Source of the DNA: Pseudoxanthomonas sangjuensis
Lineage (GTDB): Bacteria > Pseudomonadota > Gammaproteobacteria > Xanthomonadales > Xanthomonadaceae
Length of the DNA: 64,000 nt
Reading direction: 5' to 3'
Assembly (NCBI RefSeq): GCF_010211755.1
Contig: NZ_PDWR01000009.1
Span: 1-64,000 of the forward strand
How positions within the stretch are numbered: the stretch's first letter is position 1; each line of letters starts with the position of its first letter. The position numbers were made by a program, and so were the translations under genes. Under the pieces are notes generated by a model. It was not told the DNA's origin and searched no databases. It saw only the letters and a program-made list of their open reading frames with translations. This document shows, one piece after another, positions 57,897 to 64,000 of the stretch.

Positions 57897-58301
57897 TCAG
57901 CCGCGCTGGCGCTTGCGTTCGCGTCGCGACGCGATGTTGTCGGCGTATCTGCCGACCAGCGCGCGCAACGCGGCCTGCGCTTCGGGCAGCATGCCCATCG
58001 CCGCGATCACGCTGGGCCACAAGCCCTCGTCGTGCCAGCGCCCGAAGCGGATGTAGATGGTGTGCCAGCGGCCGTATTCGGCCGGGATGTCCGACCAGTA
58101 GGCCTCGGCCTGCGCGACCCACAGCACCGCCTCGACGAAACGCCGCGCATTGCCGCCGTTGTGCGCGCGCGCGCCGACCCGGCCGGGCAGCTCCGCTTCG
58201 ATCCGGTTCCATTGCCGGTCGGTGAGCCGCAGCCGCGAGTGCCATTGCGGCGGCTTGGCCCGCTTCTGGCCATTGCTGTCCGTGGAAGTTTCCAGCGCCA
58301 T
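57897..58301 (-). CDS. orphan IS5-type DUF4096 (transposase N-terminal) domain protein
   Basis: 134 residues from ATG 58301. The core LRLTDRQWNRIEAELPGR, then NARRFVEAVLWVAQAEAYWS, IPAEYGRWHTIYIRFGRWHD and GLW matches the N-terminal DNA-binding-like domain (PF13340) of IS5-group transposases. No DDE catalytic domain follows; instead the protein closes with an Ala-rich helix and a basic tail (YADNIASRRERKRQRG). No terminal inverted repeats or target duplications were seen around it. This suggests an IS remnant or a domesticated DNA-binding protein. An in-frame ATG at 58367 would add 22 residues read from the stem-loop region. Upstream DNA is packed with hairpins. Confidence 0.75.
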   Translation of the reverse strand: MALETSTDSNGQKRAKPPQWHSRLRLTDRQWNRIEAELPGRVGARAHNGGNARRFVEAVLWVAQAEAYWSDIPAEYGRWHTIYIRFGRWHDEGLWPSVIAAMGMLPEAQAALRALVGRYADNIASRRERKRQRG

Positions 58302-58330
58302 TGCCCTGTCACCGAATATCGCGAAAGGAT

Positions 58331-58620
58331 CGGGGGGCGGATGACCGCCCCCCGACGATGTCGCCATCGCGGCGACGGCCGGATCCGCGCGAGCTCGGGG
58401 AAGGCGTGCGGACCGGCTTCGGGGAAACAGGAAACGGGTTCCTGCCTCCCGACAGCCGCCAGTGGGGATAGACCGGCGGAAGCCTGAAATTTGGCGCCCC
58501 GTCCATGGGGCCTGGATCCCTGGGGGATCCCTTGCGGTCGCCGCCTGGCGACCGCAAGGGCGCAGGCCGGCCCCCATGCCTGCGTGTGCGGGTTCTGCTC
58601 GTCCGTAAGCGGAAGTCCGC
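58331..58620 (-). ncRNA. candidate structured RNA or leader: eight or more stem-loops in 290 bases
   Basis: This covers most of the 561-base stretch (58302-58862) that has no convincing gene. Stems: 58331-58340/58345-58354 (10 bp), 58360-58365/58371-58376 (6), 58420-58451 (6 bp extended through an internal loop), 58456-58463/58472-58479 (8), 58496-58500/58507-58511 (5), 58514-58520/58524-58530 (7), 58529-58542/58547-58560 (14 bp, perfect), 58561-58567/58578-58584 (7) and 58609-58620 (4). The 8-bp stem pairs fully, as G-U, only in a minus-strand RNA, which is the sense of the DUF4096 gene. It could be a long structured 5' leader, an independent RNA or a compound repeat. No homology was checked. 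Bases 58621-58862 hold nothing I can name. Confidence 0.45.
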
Positions 58621-58862: not shown

Positions 58863-59789
58863 CTAGCCGCGGATCGCCGCTTCCATCGCCGCCTGCCAGG
58901 GCGGCGGATCGGTGATGCGCTCGGCGAGGAACCCGAGCAGGGACTGCACCTTCGGCGAATTGCGCCGGCTCTTCGGATAGACCAGCGAGACCGGCTCCGG
59001 CACCGGCGCGTGCTGCGGCAACAGCACGCGCAGCTGGCCGGCCACCACGGCATCGACCGCGACCGGGCCCGGCAACAGCGCGATGCCGAGCCCGGCGACC
59101 GCGGCATCGCGCAGGTGCACGGCGCTGCTGCTGCGCAGGCGCTCGCGCACCCGGCAGGCCTGCGCCTCGCCGCCGGACTGCAATTGCCAGAAGCCGTTGC
59201 CGTCGGCGAGCGCGTCGAGCAGGCCATCGTGCCCGGCCAGGTCGGACAGCGATTGCGGCGTGCCGTTCGCCTGCAGGTAGGCGGGGCTGGCGCACAGCCA
59301 GCGCCGGAACGCGGTCAGCGGCCGCGCGACCAGGGTCGAATCGCCGAGTCGGCCGACGCGCAACGCAAGGTCGAAATGGCTTTCGCTGAGGTTGGCGTCG
59401 CGCTCGCCGGATTCGACCTCGAGCAGCACTTCCGGGAATTTCGCCGCGAACGCGTCCAGCAGCGGCAGCAGCAGGCGCGCGCCGGCATCGCCCGGCACGG
59501 CGATGCGCAGGCGGCCCCTGACCAGCTGGTTGTGGCCGGCGACGAAGTCGTTGGCGGCGCCGACCGATTCGAGGATGCGCACGCACTTGGCGTAGTAGAC
59601 CGCGCCGACCTCGGTGGCGCGCACGCTGCGCGAGGAGCGGTCCAGCAGCGAGGCGCCGAGTTCCTTTTCCAGTTCGGCGATGCGCCGGCTGACCACCGAC
59701 TTGGTGGTGCCGAGCCGGCGCGCGGCGTCGGTGAAGCTGGCGGTTTCGACCACGGCGACCAGCGCGGTCATGTCGGCGAATTCGACCAT
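58863..59789 (-). CDS. LysR-family transcriptional regulator
   Basis: 308 residues. The N-terminal winged helix-turn-helix is MTALVAVVETASFTDAARRL and TTKSVVSRRIAELEKELGAS, followed by LLDRSSRSVRATEVG. A two-lobed effector domain follows (RGRLRIAVPGDAGARLLLPL, then VAGLGIALLPG). The SVRATEVGAVYYAKCVRIL wording is that of the large CrgA/DsdC-like AaeR group. The ATG at 59789 lies 8 bases after the stop of the pseudokinase gene on the same strand, so it is probably the last gene of the GTPase operon. Its targets are not known. Confidence 0.92.
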   Translation of the reverse strand: MVEFADMTALVAVVETASFTDAARRLGTTKSVVSRRIAELEKELGASLLDRSSRSVRATEVGAVYYAKCVRILESVGAANDFVAGHNQLVRGRLRIAVPGDAGARLLLPLLDAFAAKFPEVLLEVESGERDANLSESHFDLALRVGRLGDSTLVARPLTAFRRWLCASPAYLQANGTPQSLSDLAGHDGLLDALADGNGFWQLQSGGEAQACRVRERLRSSSAVHLRDAAVAGLGIALLPGPVAVDAVVAGQLRVLLPQHAPVPEPVSLVYPKSRRNSPKVQSLLGFLAERITDPPPWQAAMEAAIRG

Positions 59790-59797
59790 GGCGACCG

Positions 59798-61306
59798 CTA
59801 CGCCCCCATCGCCAGCAGTTCGGCGAGCACCGCGCGCAGCGTGTCGCGGTCGGCGTGCGGCGATGCGACCGCGCTGCGGCCGTCGCGCGTCCAGCCGGTT
59901 TCGCCGGTGCCCGCGGCGGCGTCGAGCAGCAGCACGGCGACGCCGGCTCCGCGGCCGAGTCCGCGCGCCAGTTCGCGGCCAGCGCCGTCGCCGAAGTCCG
60001 CCGACAGCACCAGCAGCGACACCGCGCCGTCGCGCAGCAACGCTTCGATCCGCGCCGGTTCCGTCGCCGCCAGCGCCGGCACGCCGAGCGCGGTCAGCAC
60101 TTCGACCAGCGCCTCGGCGGTGCGCGCCGGTTGCGCCGCGACCACCGCGATGCGTTCGGCGCCGGTCCGGGCCGCCGCGCCCGCCCGTTCGCCCGCGTGC
60201 GATCGGGTGGGCGCGCCGACCACGCGCGCGACCGGCACGCGGATCCACAGTTCGTGGCCGCCGGCCTTGCGCGGGACCAGTTCGACCCTGGCCTTCATCC
60301 GCCGCAGCAGCAGTTGCGACGCCGCCAGCGCTAGGCTGCCGCCGGCATCGGTCTGCGCGAGCAGGTCGGAGCTGGTGGCCAGCGCGCCGAAGCGCTGCGC
60401 GTCGAAGCCGTCGGGCTCGCGCGCCAGTTCGATCTCCAGCGCGCCCGACGCGGCCGCCAGCGACACGGCGAGGCTGCCGGACTCGGCGCCGTCGAGCGCA
60501 TGGATGACCAGGTTGATCAGCACCTGGCGCAACCCCAGGTCGTCGACCTCGACCGTCGCGCCGCGCTTGGGCAGGCGCACTTCGAACGCGATGCCCTGCG
60601 CGCACGCCTGCAGGCCGAAACTCTGCTGCAGCAGCGCGGCCAGCTGCGCCAGTTCCAGCACGCCGGGCGCGCCGTCGGCATCGGGCCCGCCGAGCGCGAG
60701 CAGCGCGTTGTTCGACATCGCCTCCAGCCGCACCGCGGCATGCTGGATCGCGGCGACCGAGCGCTGCGTGGCCGGGTCGTCGCGGTGGCGCTGGCCGAGC
60801 AGGCGCGCGTGTCCGGCCAGCAGCGCCAGCGGCGCGCGCATCTCGTCGGCGAGTCCGGCGAACAGCTCGGCGTCGCGGCGGAACGGTTGCAGCGCGCGCG
60901 GACGCGCGCGTCCGGCGCCGCCCTTCAGCATCGCCTTGCGCAGCTTCGCCTCGCGCAGTTCCGCTTCGTTGCCGGCCTGCTGCTTGCGCTGCAGCGCGCG
61001 TTGCAGTTCGGTCGCGTCGCGCAGCACGAAGTGGCAGCTGTCCTCTTCCTCGACCACGTGCACGTCGGCGTAGCGGCCCTCCGACAGCTCCACCGCCGGC
61101 ACCAGGTCGGGCACGCCGGCGCCGCCGCCGCGCAGGTCGCGCAGGCGCCGGCACACGTCCTCGCGCGCGTCGCCGCCGGCGACGAACCAGTCGAGGTCGC
61201 CGACCACGTCGAGCAGCTCGCCGTCGCGGTCGAAGGTCACCACCACCGGCGGGCGCGGCGCGCCCCTGGCGGCGGAAGCGGCATGGCGCGGCGTCCTCGG
61301 GCCCAC
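59798..61306 (-). CDS. degenerate histidine kinase with pseudo-receiver, in a GTPase operon
   Basis: 502 residues from GTG 61306, which has GGAGGG 9 bases upstream and lies 2 bases after the GTPase stop. An N-terminal PAS-like part (VVVTFDRDGELLDVVGDLDW) is followed by a coiled segment and a HisKA-like helix pair. Here the phospho-His position is Asp (LADEMRAPLALLAGHARLL instead of LxHExRxPL). In the ATPase-like domain the N-box reads VLINLVIHALDG, with the key Asn replaced by His, and the G1/G2 glycine boxes are not recognisable. The C-terminus is receiver-like (RIAVVAAQPARTAEALVEV, LLVLSADFGDG). It is probably a pseudokinase acting as a scaffold or effector of the GTPase. This is inference. 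Confidence 0.75.
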   Translation of the reverse strand: MGPRTPRHAASAARGAPRPPVVVTFDRDGELLDVVGDLDWFVAGGDAREDVCRRLRDLRGGGAGVPDLVPAVELSEGRYADVHVVEEEDSCHFVLRDATELQRALQRKQQAGNEAELREAKLRKAMLKGGAGRARPRALQPFRRDAELFAGLADEMRAPLALLAGHARLLGQRHRDDPATQRSVAAIQHAAVRLEAMSNNALLALGGPDADGAPGVLELAQLAALLQQSFGLQACAQGIAFEVRLPKRGATVEVDDLGLRQVLINLVIHALDGAESGSLAVSLAAASGALEIELAREPDGFDAQRFGALATSSDLLAQTDAGGSLALAASQLLLRRMKARVELVPRKAGGHELWIRVPVARVVGAPTRSHAGERAGAAARTGAERIAVVAAQPARTAEALVEVLTALGVPALAATEPARIEALLRDGAVSLLVLSADFGDGAGRELARGLGRGAGVAVLLLDAAAGTGETGWTRDGRSAVASPHADRDTLRAVLAELLAMGA

Positions 61307-61308
61307 GG

Positions 61309-61815
61309 CTATGCGCCCTCCGCGACCGCCCGGGCCAGCGCGGCGCAGGCTTCCTCGACGCCGGCGCCGCTGAGCGCGCTGGCGCTGAACACCGGCAGCT
61401 GCGCGGCGAGCTTCTCGATCCGCGCCGGCGCCACCTCCCATTCGCCGGCCAGGTCGTTCTTGTTCACCAGCAGCACCGCCGGCAGCGCGCGGCCGAGCAG
61501 CCGCTGCGCCTGTTCGCGCAGTTCCAATGCGGTGTCGACGGTGTCGGCGCGGGTGCCGTCGGCGACCAGCAGCAGGCCGTGGCAGCCGCCGAGGTAGTTG
61601 GCGCGCATCTGGTCGAGCGCGTTGGCGCCGGCGATGTCCCACAGCACCAGGCGCAGTTCGTCGTCGCCCAGGCGCAGGGTCTTGCTGTCGACCTTGACCC
61701 CGACCGTGGTCAGGTAGGCCGGCGAGAAGGTGTTGCGCACCGTGCGCGCGACCGTGCTGGTCTTGCCGACCGCGAAATCGCCGAGCAGGCAGACCTTGCG
61801 CGACACCGAGCTCAT
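61309..61815 (-). CDS. Ras-like small GTP-binding protein lacking the catalytic Gln
   Basis: 168 residues of a prokaryotic Ras-superfamily GTPase. G1 is GDFAVGKTS (12-20), the G2 Thr is in YLTTVGVKV (36-37), G3 is WDIAGAN (59-65), G4 is NKND (118-121), and G5 is SAS (144-146). The residue matching Gln61 of Ras is Ala64, so intrinsic hydrolysis should be slow and a partner may supply the catalysis. No lipidation motif. The ATG at 61815 overlaps the stop of the OmpA-domain gene (ATGA). The gene order places it between a membrane sensor and a pseudokinase. Confidence 0.93.
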   Translation of the reverse strand: MSSVSRKVCLLGDFAVGKTSTVARTVRNTFSPAYLTTVGVKVDSKTLRLGDDELRLVLWDIAGANALDQMRANYLGGCHGLLLVADGTRADTVDTALELREQAQRLLGRALPAVLLVNKNDLAGEWEVAPARIEKLAAQLPVFSASALSGAGVEEACAALARAVAEGA

Positions 61816-63536
61816 CGCGCCGCCTCCCGCTTCGCCGGCATCGGCACCGCGACCACGCGCGCGCCGCGTTGCCCGATGGCCGCATCCGCCGCAGCCAGCG
61901 CCTGGTCGACCGCGACGTCGGAGGGCGCGCGCACTTCCGCGGCGAGCCGGCCGGCGAGCCATTCGGCGCGCTGCCGGCGCAGTTCGGCGTTCTGTTCGCC
62001 GCTGCCGGCGCCGTCGGTCAGGCCGGCGGTGCGGAAGCCGAACGCGATGTCGCCGCCGCCGGCCGCCTGCAGCCCGCGCACGCCGGCGACGATGCGCGCC
62101 AGCGCGGCTTCCGCGTCGGCGTCGGGCACGCCGGCGCCGCTGGCGAACGGGATCGTCAGCCGCTTGAGTTGCGCGCCCAGCGCTTCCACCCGCGCCTGCT
62201 GCGGGTACGCCAGCGCGCTGGCGTCGATGCCGGTCACCCCCGCCATCGCCAGCCCCGGCGGATCGTGGCGCAGGCGGTACCAGGTGGCGAACGGCACCTC
62301 GCCGCGCAGCTTCAGCACGCCCTGCGCGTCCGGCGGCAAGACGTTCTCTTTCGGCAGCCCCAGCGCGAGCGCGGCGCGCGCGGCGGTGAGCTCGGGTTCC
62401 AGCGACATGAAGCCGCGCAGCTTCCACCGCGCTTCGATCTTCGGGTGGGCTTGCGACAGCCATGCCTGCGGATCGGCGGCGGCGGGATCGCGCAGGCCCT
62501 CGATGCGCAGTTCGCCGCGGGCCGAATCGTCGAACTGCGTCACCACGACGCCGGGCATCGACGACAGCTGCCGGCGGATCCCGGCGACCTGCTTCGACCA
62601 GCTCCATGACGCCCACGCCCACCATGCCAGCAGGCCGGCGACGACGGCGAGCGCGCCCCACAGCACGTAGCGCGACGTATTCGATTGCGATTGCGGTTGC
62701 GGCGCGGCCGTGGCGTCGTCGCGCGCGTTGAGCGCGTCGAATTGCGGCTGTTCGAGCAGGCCGGCGCCTTCCGCGCCGACGCCCGTGCCCTCGGCCAGCG
62801 CCGCGCCGTGCCGCGCATGCAAGGCTTCGATCAGTTCATCGAGGCGGGTCGGGAAATCGACCGGCGGCACGCCGCGCACGAACGCGACCAGCCGCGCCTG
62901 CGGGCCTTCGCCGACTTCCAGCCGGTAGTCGCCGACAGTCGCCGAGTTGATCGCGTGGGCGTCGTCTCCCGACACCGAATCGCGCACGAACTGCTGGATC
63001 GCGGTGAACATGCCGGCGACCGCGTCGGCGTCGAGCTCGGGCAGCCCGCTGGCGGTCAGGTGGCCGAGCAGCAGGCCGGATTCGGGCTGGATCAGGAACA
63101 GGTGCTCGACCCGCCAGCTCGCGGTATGCCGCAACACGACCTGCGCGTACGGCACGCCGCTGCGCCAGGCTTCGACGCGCCATTTCAGCGAGCGCGGGCT
63201 CAGCGCGTTGTTGACCGCGCGGTCGATGTCGGCGGAGAGCTGGCGCATCGCTTCCTGGATCGAGCGCCGGATCGCCGGGCCGATCACCGGGAACACTGCG
63301 TTGACCACGGTTTCCGGCCTGCGCTGCACCGCCTGTTCGAGGCCGCTGACCGTGGCCTCGGCCAGCGCGCGGCTCAGCCGCGTCGGCCTGCCGCTGGCGA
63401 GGCCGCGTTCGATTTCGTCGGCGACGCGGTCGGGTACGCGCTCGCCGCTTTCGCGCAGGTCGGCCTGCAGCGCATCGAGGCGATCGCGCTCCTGGTCGAG
63501 CAACAACTGGCGAAGACGGTCGTATTCGCCGTTCAT
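61812..63536 (-). CDS. inner-membrane protein with cytosolic N-domain and periplasmic OmpA-like domain
   Basis: 574 residues. The N-terminal cytosolic part (1-285) has helices with PTRLSRALAEATVSGLEQAV and VVNAVFPVIGPAIRRSIQEA. It then has a roadblock/profilin-like segment (VEHLFLIQPESGLLLGHLTA, DADAVAGMFTAIQQFVRDSV, ARLVAFVRG). A single membrane helix lies at 290-311. Outside there is a BON-like segment (320-370) and an OmpA-type C-terminal domain (about 470-550, LTIPFASGAGVPDADAEAAL, then QNAELRRQRAEWLAGRLA). The layout fits a protein that senses the cell wall and talks to the adjacent GTPase. The ATG at 63536 lies 17 bases after the coiled-coil gene. The roadblock and BON assignments are my inference. 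Confidence 0.8.
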   Translation of the reverse strand: MNGEYDRLRQLLLDQERDRLDALQADLRESGERVPDRVADEIERGLASGRPTRLSRALAEATVSGLEQAVQRRPETVVNAVFPVIGPAIRRSIQEAMRQLSADIDRAVNNALSPRSLKWRVEAWRSGVPYAQVVLRHTASWRVEHLFLIQPESGLLLGHLTASGLPELDADAVAGMFTAIQQFVRDSVSGDDAHAINSATVGDYRLEVGEGPQARLVAFVRGVPPVDFPTRLDELIEALHARHGAALAEGTGVGAEGAGLLEQPQFDALNARDDATAAPQPQSQSNTSRYVLWGALAVVAGLLAWWAWASWSWSKQVAGIRRQLSSMPGVVVTQFDDSARGELRIEGLRDPAAADPQAWLSQAHPKIEARWKLRGFMSLEPELTAARAALALGLPKENVLPPDAQGVLKLRGEVPFATWYRLRHDPPGLAMAGVTGIDASALAYPQQARVEALGAQLKRLTIPFASGAGVPDADAEAALARIVAGVRGLQAAGGGDIAFGFRTAGLTDGAGSGEQNAELRRQRAEWLAGRLAAEVRAPSDVAVDQALAAADAAIGQRGARVVAVPMPAKREAAR

Positions 63537-63553
63537 GCGTGGGACCTGCGTCC

Positions 63554-64000
63554 TCAGCGGCGCTTGCCGCCGCCCTTGCCCCCGGCGGTGACCACGTCCT
63601 GCGCGCCGCGCAGCCGCAGCGAAACCTCGGCCATCAGGTCGGCCAGGTCCTCGCGCGCCAGCTTCTCGCCGCCCAGCTCGTCGCGCGCGCTGGCCAGCGC
63701 CTCGCGCACCTGCTGCAGCGCGGCCTGCAGTTTCTGTTCGCTCTGCGCCAGCGCTTCGCGCGCGCGCGCGGCGGCGGCCTCGGCGTGGTCCTCGTGCTGC
63801 TGCAGCACGGCGTTGATTTCGTCGCGCTGGCTGCGCAGCGCCTGGCCGAAGCGGGTGTCGACGTCGTCGAGCGCGCTCTTGCGCGCGGCGCTCTCCTGGC
63901 GCAGCTGCTGCACCAGCTTCTCGATCTGCGGGGCCAGCCTGCTTTCCAGCGCCGCGATCCGCGCCTCGTAGTCGCCGGCGATGCGCGCGGCCTCGGCCTC
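63554..64000 (-). CDS. long coiled-coil protein, C-terminal part; gene continues past the window
   Basis: Open through the right edge; 148 residues are visible. It is almost entirely heptad-rich helix (ESRLAPQIEKLVQQLRQESA, ALDDVDTRFGQALRSQRDE, AAARAREALAQSEQKLQAAL) and ends in a short Gly/Lys/Arg tail (GGKGGGKRR). Coiled-coil partners are common in polarity and scaffold systems. The reading frame has no stop up to base 64000, so the start is unseen. It is the upstream neighbour of the OmpA-domain gene and likely part of the same operon. Confidence 0.75.
   Translation of the reverse strand, partial: EAEAARIAGDYEARIAALESRLAPQIEKLVQQLRQESAARKSALDDVDTRFGQALRSQRDEINAVLQQHEDHAEAAAARAREALAQSEQKLQAALQQVREALASARDELGGEKLAREDLADLMAEVSLRLRGAQDVVTAGGKGGGKRR

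What the first reader, a model, noticed from the sequence alone, without database searches (positions are those of the whole stretch)
58863..64000. Overlapped operon of membrane OmpA-like sensor, Ras-like GTPase, pseudokinase and LysR regulator
Seen: five same-strand genes with gaps of 17, -4, 2 and 8 bases, so they are almost surely one transcript. Known: prokaryotic Ras-like GTPases (MglA, Rup families) usually act with a roadblock GAP partner. Inference: the cytosolic segment of the OmpA-domain protein (residues 130-222) has a roadblock-like layout and could be that partner. A cell-wall contact outside would then be passed to the GTPase, then to the degenerate kinase, and perhaps to a LysR regulator. 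I know of no described pathway with this exact set.
Basis: partly seen in the sequence, partly recalled or inferred. Interest (0 to 1): 0.7.

Follow-up and report, generated by a model that had tools for sequence, protein, structure and literature searches.

The report
Wall-anchored longin protein beside Rab-like GTPase
A bacterial gene set couples a small Rab-like GTPase to a wall-binding membrane protein whose inner part is predicted to fold like proteins that control Rab GTPases in our own cells, and in this bacterium the attached kinase has lost its catalytic residues.

Summary
The five genes and gaps are as described. Four of them match the 'Group 1 Rup' GTPase neighbourhood published in 2014 (PMC4316618), so the set is not new. 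Three things appear to be. (1) That paper's 'conserved domain of unknown function' is a longin/roadblock fold in an AlphaFold2 model; the best structural matches include TRAPP, Fuzzy-Inturned, Mon1-Ccz1 and MglB, and also SNARE and adaptor longins. In an order-wide sample of 398 genomes 65 of 70 with the GTPase also have the domain (64 adjacent), 324 have neither; some loci have GTPase and kinase without it. (2) In 12 Xanthomonadaceae loci the output kinase has lost its catalytic residues but keeps a Gln-Gln motif (11-12 of 12); 72 other loci are nearly all intact. A LysR gene follows in 12 of 12, and the upstream response regulator is usually missing. (3) Elsewhere in Pseudomonadota class III cyclases or GGDEF-EAL proteins sit in the output position. 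That the longin domain is the GTPase's platform, and that the Gln acts in trans, are inferences: no complex was modelled and nothing is shown by experiment.

The parts
63554..64000 (-). Coiled-coil protein gene, first of the four core genes; 198 aa in full, its start lies 150 bases beyond the window
   Evidence: conserved N-terminal IRxxLFGG and C-terminal KxxREDLA motifs in an alignment of 72 loci; in one open frame with the membrane protein in L059
61812..63536 (-). Longin-TM-BON-OmpA membrane protein, 574 aa
   Evidence: OmpA in 43 of 68 relatives
62712..63119 (-). Longin/roadblock-fold domain, residues 140-275 of the membrane protein
62598..62669 (-). Probable transmembrane helix, about residues 290-313
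   Evidence: hydrophobic stretch read from the sequence, within modelled helix 287-326; no topology program was run
62208..62552 (-). BON-like periplasmic segment, residues 329-443
   Evidence: BON in 5 of 68 relatives; profile matches Rv0899 over 395-570; secondary structure
61836..62195 (-). OmpA-type peptidoglycan-binding domain, residues 448-567
61309..61815 (-). Rup-type Ras-superfamily GTPase, 168 aa, Ala at the catalytic Gln position
59798..61306 (-). Degenerate hybrid histidine kinase (PAS-like, DHp-CA fold, receiver fold), 502 aa
61013..61249 (-). PAS-like N-terminal domain of the output protein, residues 20-98
   Evidence: strand and helix order in the model; long alignments to plant phytochromes begin at residue 18-20; the domain was not searched by itself
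60977..60982 (-). Invariant Gln-Gln (residues 109-110) on the helix after the PAS-like domain
   Evidence: Q109 63 of 63, Q110 62 of 63
60845..60847 (-). Asp154 in place of the phosphoacceptor His
58863..59789 (-). LysR-type regulator, lineage-specific fifth gene

Best explanation
This is a Group 1 Rup GTPase system, in a kinase-dead form found in Xanthomonadaceae. Shown by sequence: gene order, absence of the G3 Gln in the GTPase, loss of kinase and receiver catalytic residues, retention of Gln109-Gln110. Shown by structure prediction: the cytosolic part of the wall-binding membrane protein is a longin/roadblock domain. Inferred: this domain, probably as a dimer and with the coiled-coil protein, is the inner-membrane platform that binds the GTPase and sets its nucleotide state, under control of the BON-OmpA part that touches peptidoglycan. 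Inferred: GTP-bound Rup binds the PAS-QQ segment of the output protein, whose Gln may complete the active site in trans (an idea of the 2014 paper). In relatives this would switch a histidine kinase, a class III cyclase or a GGDEF-EAL enzyme; here, with the enzyme dead, the protein can act only by binding. Speculative: the LysR protein replaces the missing response regulator as transcriptional output.
For: 2014 description of the four-gene neighbourhood and of the invariant Gln. None of 81 GTPases has the G3 Gln. Longin/roadblock fold of residues 140-275. GTPase and longin domain: of 398 genomes 65 have both, 5 GTPase only, 4 longin only, 324 neither; 64 of 72 GTPase matches have it adjacent on the same strand, upstream. 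In other Pseudomonadota the GTPase is beside the longin gene in 15 of 17 loci read, out of 46 genomes with a longin match. Kinase residues, 12 Xanthomonadaceae against 72 other loci: His 1 against 70; N-box Asn 0 against 69; G1 Asp 1 against 69; receiver Asp 2 against 65; Q1 11 against 70, Q2 12 against 70. The 12 form one clade in the GTPase tree, support 0.951. Own genome has no Robl_LC7 match. Outputs elsewhere: 8 class III cyclase, 3 GGDEF-EAL, 1 kinase of 12 scanned.
Confidence: 0.6

Rival explanations
1. The longin-fold domain is a dimerisation or scaffold module for the membrane protein and does not touch the GTPase, which is regulated by something else.
For: Longin folds of SNAREs and adaptors are among the structural matches; L155 has the membrane protein without this part beside a GTPase gene, and L042, L064, L156 and L157 have GTPase and kinase without the membrane gene.
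Against: 65 of 70 GTPase-bearing genomes have the domain, adjacent in 64; TRAPP, Fuzzy-Inturned, Mon1-Ccz1 and MglB, all GTPase regulators, are among the best matches; no other roadblock match in the genome.
Confidence: 0.25
2. The kinase-like protein still works in phosphotransfer, for example as a regulatory partner of another kinase in the manner of DivL.
For: DHp-CA and receiver folds are kept in the model, with DivL and RetS among the matches; L003 keeps a His.
Against: N-box, G1, G2 and receiver acidic-pocket residues are gone in 11-12 of 12 loci, and no receiver gene lies upstream in 7 of 7 readable loci of the set L001-L008.
Confidence: 0.2
3. The operon is decaying in Xanthomonadaceae and the dead kinase reflects relaxed selection.
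For: Only 10 of 297 family genomes have the GTPase at E<=1e-20; the set is split and the membrane protein shortened in G078 (L153).
Against: Key G1, G3 and G4 residues intact in the GTPase, Gln pair retained in 11-12 of 12, open frames and LysR linkage kept in 12 loci, which form one clade. No selection test was run.
Confidence: 0.2
4. LysR is only a neighbour with its own role; the pathway ends at the GTPase and its effector. This is compatible with the rest of the main reading.
For: A 56% relative of this LysR stands alone in G191 and weaker ones (48 and 43%) are in G157.
Against: Downstream of the kinase in 12 of 12 family loci; present at the locus in the 5 Rup-bearing genomes of the 198 searched.
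Confidence: 0.5

Closest known systems
Group 1 Rup GTPase systems (Wuichet and Søgaard-Andersen 2014, PMC4316618; abstract, passages and sections 16-18 read)
   Same: Coiled-coil gene, domain-TM-OmpA gene, GTPase without G3 Gln, output protein with invariant N-terminal Gln
   Different: There the domain is of unknown function and outputs are kinase or c-di-GMP enzymes; here the domain is given a fold, the kinase is dead, and a LysR gene follows
MglA-MglB (Ras-like GTPase and roadblock GAP)
   Same: Small GTPase with a genetically linked longin/roadblock-fold partner; MglB is among the structural matches
   Different: Partner is membrane- and wall-anchored, no significant sequence similarity to 30 roadblock proteins was found, and the GTPase matches Ras and Rab best
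Actinobacterial conservons (CvnA-D; PMC13343842, passages read)
   Same: GTPase, roadblock-fold partner and histidine-kinase-like protein in one operon
   Different: CvnA8 autophosphorylates (PMC13343842); here the kinase residues are gone, the longin-fold part is fused to a peptidoglycan-binding membrane protein, and no Robl_LC7 match was found in the genome
TRAPP, Mon1-Ccz1 and Fuzzy-Inturned Rab exchange factors
   Same: Among the closest solved structures to residues 140-275; they act on Rab GTPases
   Different: Eukaryotic multi-subunit complexes; no exchange activity is known for the bacterial protein

Membership tests
Group 1 Rup GTPase system | Single-domain Ras-superfamily GTPase | tested here: met
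   Pfam Ras 1.1e-25; key G1, G3 and G4 residues (G12, K18, D60, G63, N118, K119, D121) in 81 of 81
Group 1 Rup GTPase system | No Gln in the G3 motif | tested here: met
   Ala in the window; Gln in 0 of 81
Group 1 Rup GTPase system | Neighbouring coiled-coil gene and conserved domain-TM-OmpA gene | tested here: met
   coiled coil judged from sequence and weak Pfam matches to helical families; TM helix read from sequence and model only
Group 1 Rup GTPase system | Output module with invariant N-terminal Gln | tested here: met
   Q109 63 of 63; that it is the same Gln as in the 2014 logo is inferred, the figure is not held
Group 1 Rup GTPase system | Place within the Group 1 clade of the 2014 tree | not tested
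   The sequences of that tree were not fetched
Roadblock/longin superfamily | Longin/roadblock fold | tested here: met
Roadblock/longin superfamily | Detectable sequence relationship | tested here: inconclusive
   hhalign against 30 roadblock proteins not significant; weak Pfam hits Fuz_longin_1 0.0092, Robl_LC7 0.0099, Intu_longin_1 0.2 in one, one and two members of 68, beside unrelated families; the only PDB profile hit up to E 10 is a roadblock protein at E 0.55
Roadblock/longin superfamily | Binding or regulation of a small GTPase | not testable with these tools
   Complexes could not be modelled
Catalytically active histidine kinase | Phosphoacceptor His, N-box Asn, G1 Asp | tested here: not met
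   Window has Asp, His and Arg at these positions
Actinobacterial conservon | Stand-alone MglB-type roadblock protein in the operon | tested here: not met
   No Robl_LC7 match in the operon proteins or in the genome

The most novel reading that the evidence does not exclude
Bacteria have Rab-style circuits built on a peptidoglycan-anchored longin platform: wall state sets the nucleotide state of Rup, and the output protein supplies the missing catalytic Gln, so that effector and GAP are one. Xanthomonadaceae have stripped this to a phosphorylation-free pathway in which a dead kinase acts only as the GTPase's effector and a LysR protein reads the result.
Probability: 0.25. Interest if true: 0.85.

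Novelty: new variant of a known kind. Interest (0 to 1): 0.6.

Why it matters
The 2014 survey proposed that eukaryotic Ras-superfamily GTPases derive from ancestral Rup GTPases, and predicted no MglB-type partner for Rup (abstract of PMC4316618). A longin-fold partner in the same operon would fill that gap and suggest that the pairing of Rab-like GTPases with longin domains exists in bacteria, tied to the cell wall. The kinase-dead clade is a natural experiment: it separates the conserved PAS-QQ part of the output protein from its enzyme, which makes the old proposal of a Gln supplied in trans directly testable.

Tried and rejected
Sequence-level proof of roadblock homology failed: hhalign of the longin alignment against 30 roadblock proteins was not significant, and of seven other operon segments used as controls two scored higher, kinase CA 2.2% and receiver 0.9% against 0.8%. 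A short pattern shared by both (G...DxD...M) is in 68 of 68 longin domains and 11 of 30 roadblock proteins, against 32 of 1360 and 13 of 600 shuffles and 14 of 386 windows of other operon proteins, but it was chosen after seeing the family, so I do not count it as proof.

Considered and set aside: that the GTPase is an MglA (best matches are Ras and Rab; the listing of PMC3000849 says MglA proteins have a Thr, by recall in place of the Asp that is Asp60 here, 81 of 81). That OmpA was misread: it is undetectable in the window protein alone but clear in the family.

Rows left out: alignment A1 holds the window and 67 of the 77 other loci with a membrane-protein match (fragments, near duplicates and two very long forms dropped). 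A4 holds the window and 62 of the 79 other loci with a kinase-profile match. A trial alignment A2 was not used. L092, L093, L096 and L099 repeat L003, L004, L008 and L005 and were not counted again. The 'kinase' row of L047 is its receiver gene and counts as gaps.

Literature: for 'Rup GTPase' or 'Group 1 Rup' only the 2014 paper was found. One search lists a few later papers holding a word that begins with 'rup', which may be another word; I did not open them for this. The one search for longin with OmpA, GTPase and bacterial gave one unrelated paper. Other searches. The library holds open-licence papers only. PMC3521125, PMC7703760, PMC10933270 and PMC13343842 were read as found passages; PMC4316618 as abstract, passages and sections 16-18; others as search listings.

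The response-regulator count is a lower bound: L014 has a candidate that the filter missed. The Fisher p ignores shared ancestry.

Full report
What is there. The minus strand of 58863-64000 carries five genes with gaps of 17, -4, 2 and 8 bases. The first, a coiled-coil protein, runs 150 bases beyond the window. The window is 1-64000 of a 113,984-base contig. The organism is probably a Pseudoxanthomonas: two genomes marked same genus (G218, G230) gave stretches whose sequence matches loci named Pseudoxanthomonas sacheonensis and P. kalamensis.

A known system. Wuichet and Søgaard-Andersen (PMC4316618; [quoted passage not shown] Each feature is met here. The GTPase has Ala at the Gln position and 0 of 81 have Gln. 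The output protein has Gln109-Gln110, conserved in 63 and 62 of 63.

Conservation. A scan of one-genome-per-species contigs found 230 relatives of the GTPase, of which the best 80 were kept. With the window, 81 loci hold the GTPase; profiles find the membrane protein in 78 and the coiled-coil protein in 72, while LysR is in 8, and the longin domain in 75. Four of the six loci without the longin domain are cut by contig ends; L042 and L064 have GTPase and kinase but no membrane gene nearby. In an order-wide sample of 398 genomes, 70 have the GTPase (72 matches) and 69 the longin domain; 65 have both, 64 of them adjacent, same strand, longin upstream. Exceptions: G392 (GTPase) and G404, G416 and G563 (longin) lie near contig ends; G309 and G319 have GTPase, kinase and upstream regulator without the membrane gene, the G309 GTPase with a stop inside; G344 has the membrane gene without the longin part; G408 has the longin domain without a GTPase match; G078 has both on opposite strands about 8 kb apart. 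The second GTPase copies of G330 and G336 and the GTPase of G342, all genus g77, have a kinase-like gene downstream but no membrane gene in the 1.3-1.5 kb held upstream (L105, L108, L110). In 349 genomes across the phylum, 46 have the longin domain. I read 17 of these: the coiled-coil gene is matched in 17 and the GTPase in 15; of the other two, L145 ends at a contig end and L141 shows none.

The kinase. The model shows a PAS-like domain (20-98), a helix bearing the Gln pair, DHp-CA and receiver folds. In 12 Xanthomonadaceae loci against 72 others the intact residue is found as follows: phosphoacceptor His 1 against 70, N-box Asn 0 against 69, G1 Asp 1 against 69, G2 Gly 0 against 69, receiver Asp 2 against 65, receiver Lys 0 against 66; Gln pair 11 and 12 of 12 against 70 and 70 of 72, the rest of the 72 being mostly gaps. 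The 12 form one clade in the GTPase tree (support 0.951, root set on L053), inside a group of 34 whose other kinases are intact at these positions. A receiver-domain gene lies upstream of the coiled-coil gene in 43 of 60 other loci with enough sequence, a lower bound; 37 of the 43 carry an OmpR-type DNA-binding signature, and one was checked by Pfam (L020). In the set L001-L008 it is in 0 of 7 readable loci; of the four further family loci, L098 has a receiver gene there and no match was seen in L094, L095 and L097. Thus kinase chemistry was lost, most simply once, while the Gln motif stayed, as expected if the kept function of this protein is to meet the GTPase.

Other outputs. Of 12 output proteins scanned from other families, 8 carry a class III nucleotide cyclase domain, 3 GGDEF-EAL and 1 a kinase. 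The Gln pair is present after the PAS-like part in all 8 cyclases and at a similar position in 2 of the 3 GGDEF-EAL proteins; in the third and in the kinase L146 it is not clear. The 2014 main text names c-di-GMP enzymes and kinases as outputs and has the word cyclase once, for diguanylate cyclase.

LysR. It follows the kinase in all 12 family loci and is at the locus in the 5 Rup-bearing genomes of 198 searched, but a 56% relative stands alone in G191. It is a lineage-specific companion; its part in the pathway is open.

Mechanism. Most likely the wall-binding membrane protein presents a longin platform that controls Rup, and Rup acts through the PAS-QQ segment. Loci with GTPase and kinase but no membrane gene show that the GTPase-output pair can exist without the platform. 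Steps not shown: GTPase binding by either protein, direction of regulation, role of the Gln, role of LysR. The rivals and their tests are listed in their field; the fourth, that LysR is only a neighbour, is compatible with the main reading.

Noticed in passing
L135-L140, L150, L151: Rup neighbourhoods in other Pseudomonadota have a class III nucleotide cyclase with the PAS-QQ segment as output protein.
   Followed up: partly
L105, L108, L110: GTPase loci of genus g77 (second copies in G330 and G336): the kinase-like gene matches the kinase profile at about 3-243 and 373-482 only, as if the ATP-binding domain were missing, and no membrane gene is in the short stretch upstream.
   Followed up: partly
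L136-L140, L149-L151: The periplasmic BON-like segment of the membrane protein is repeated a varying number of times, as if its reach to the wall varied.
   Followed up: no
L059:4668-6761: Coiled-coil and membrane protein parts lie in one open frame, a natural fusion that suggests the two proteins work together.
   Followed up: partly
L155:3961-5448: Membrane protein gene missing profile positions 106-281, which include the longin part, beside a GTPase gene; real loss or assembly fault unknown.
   Followed up: no
L042, L064, L156, L157: GTPase and kinase without a recognisable coiled-coil or membrane protein gene.
   Followed up: partly
L153:14811-15884: In G078 the longin part sits in a shortened membrane protein on the opposite strand, about 8 kb from the GTPase.
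   Followed up: no
window 57900-58445: IS4/5-type transposase fragment (DUF4096) downstream of the LysR gene.
   Followed up: no
L001:6258-7007 (beyond the window): GntR-UTRA regulator gene directly upstream of the coiled-coil gene, followed by a divergent gene that reads like glucose-6-phosphate dehydrogenase (the latter name is from reading the translation).
   Followed up: no
family-wide: Robl_LC7 matches are in 45 of 149 family genomes and in none of the 4 Rup-bearing ones of that sample; too few to call exclusion.
   Followed up: no
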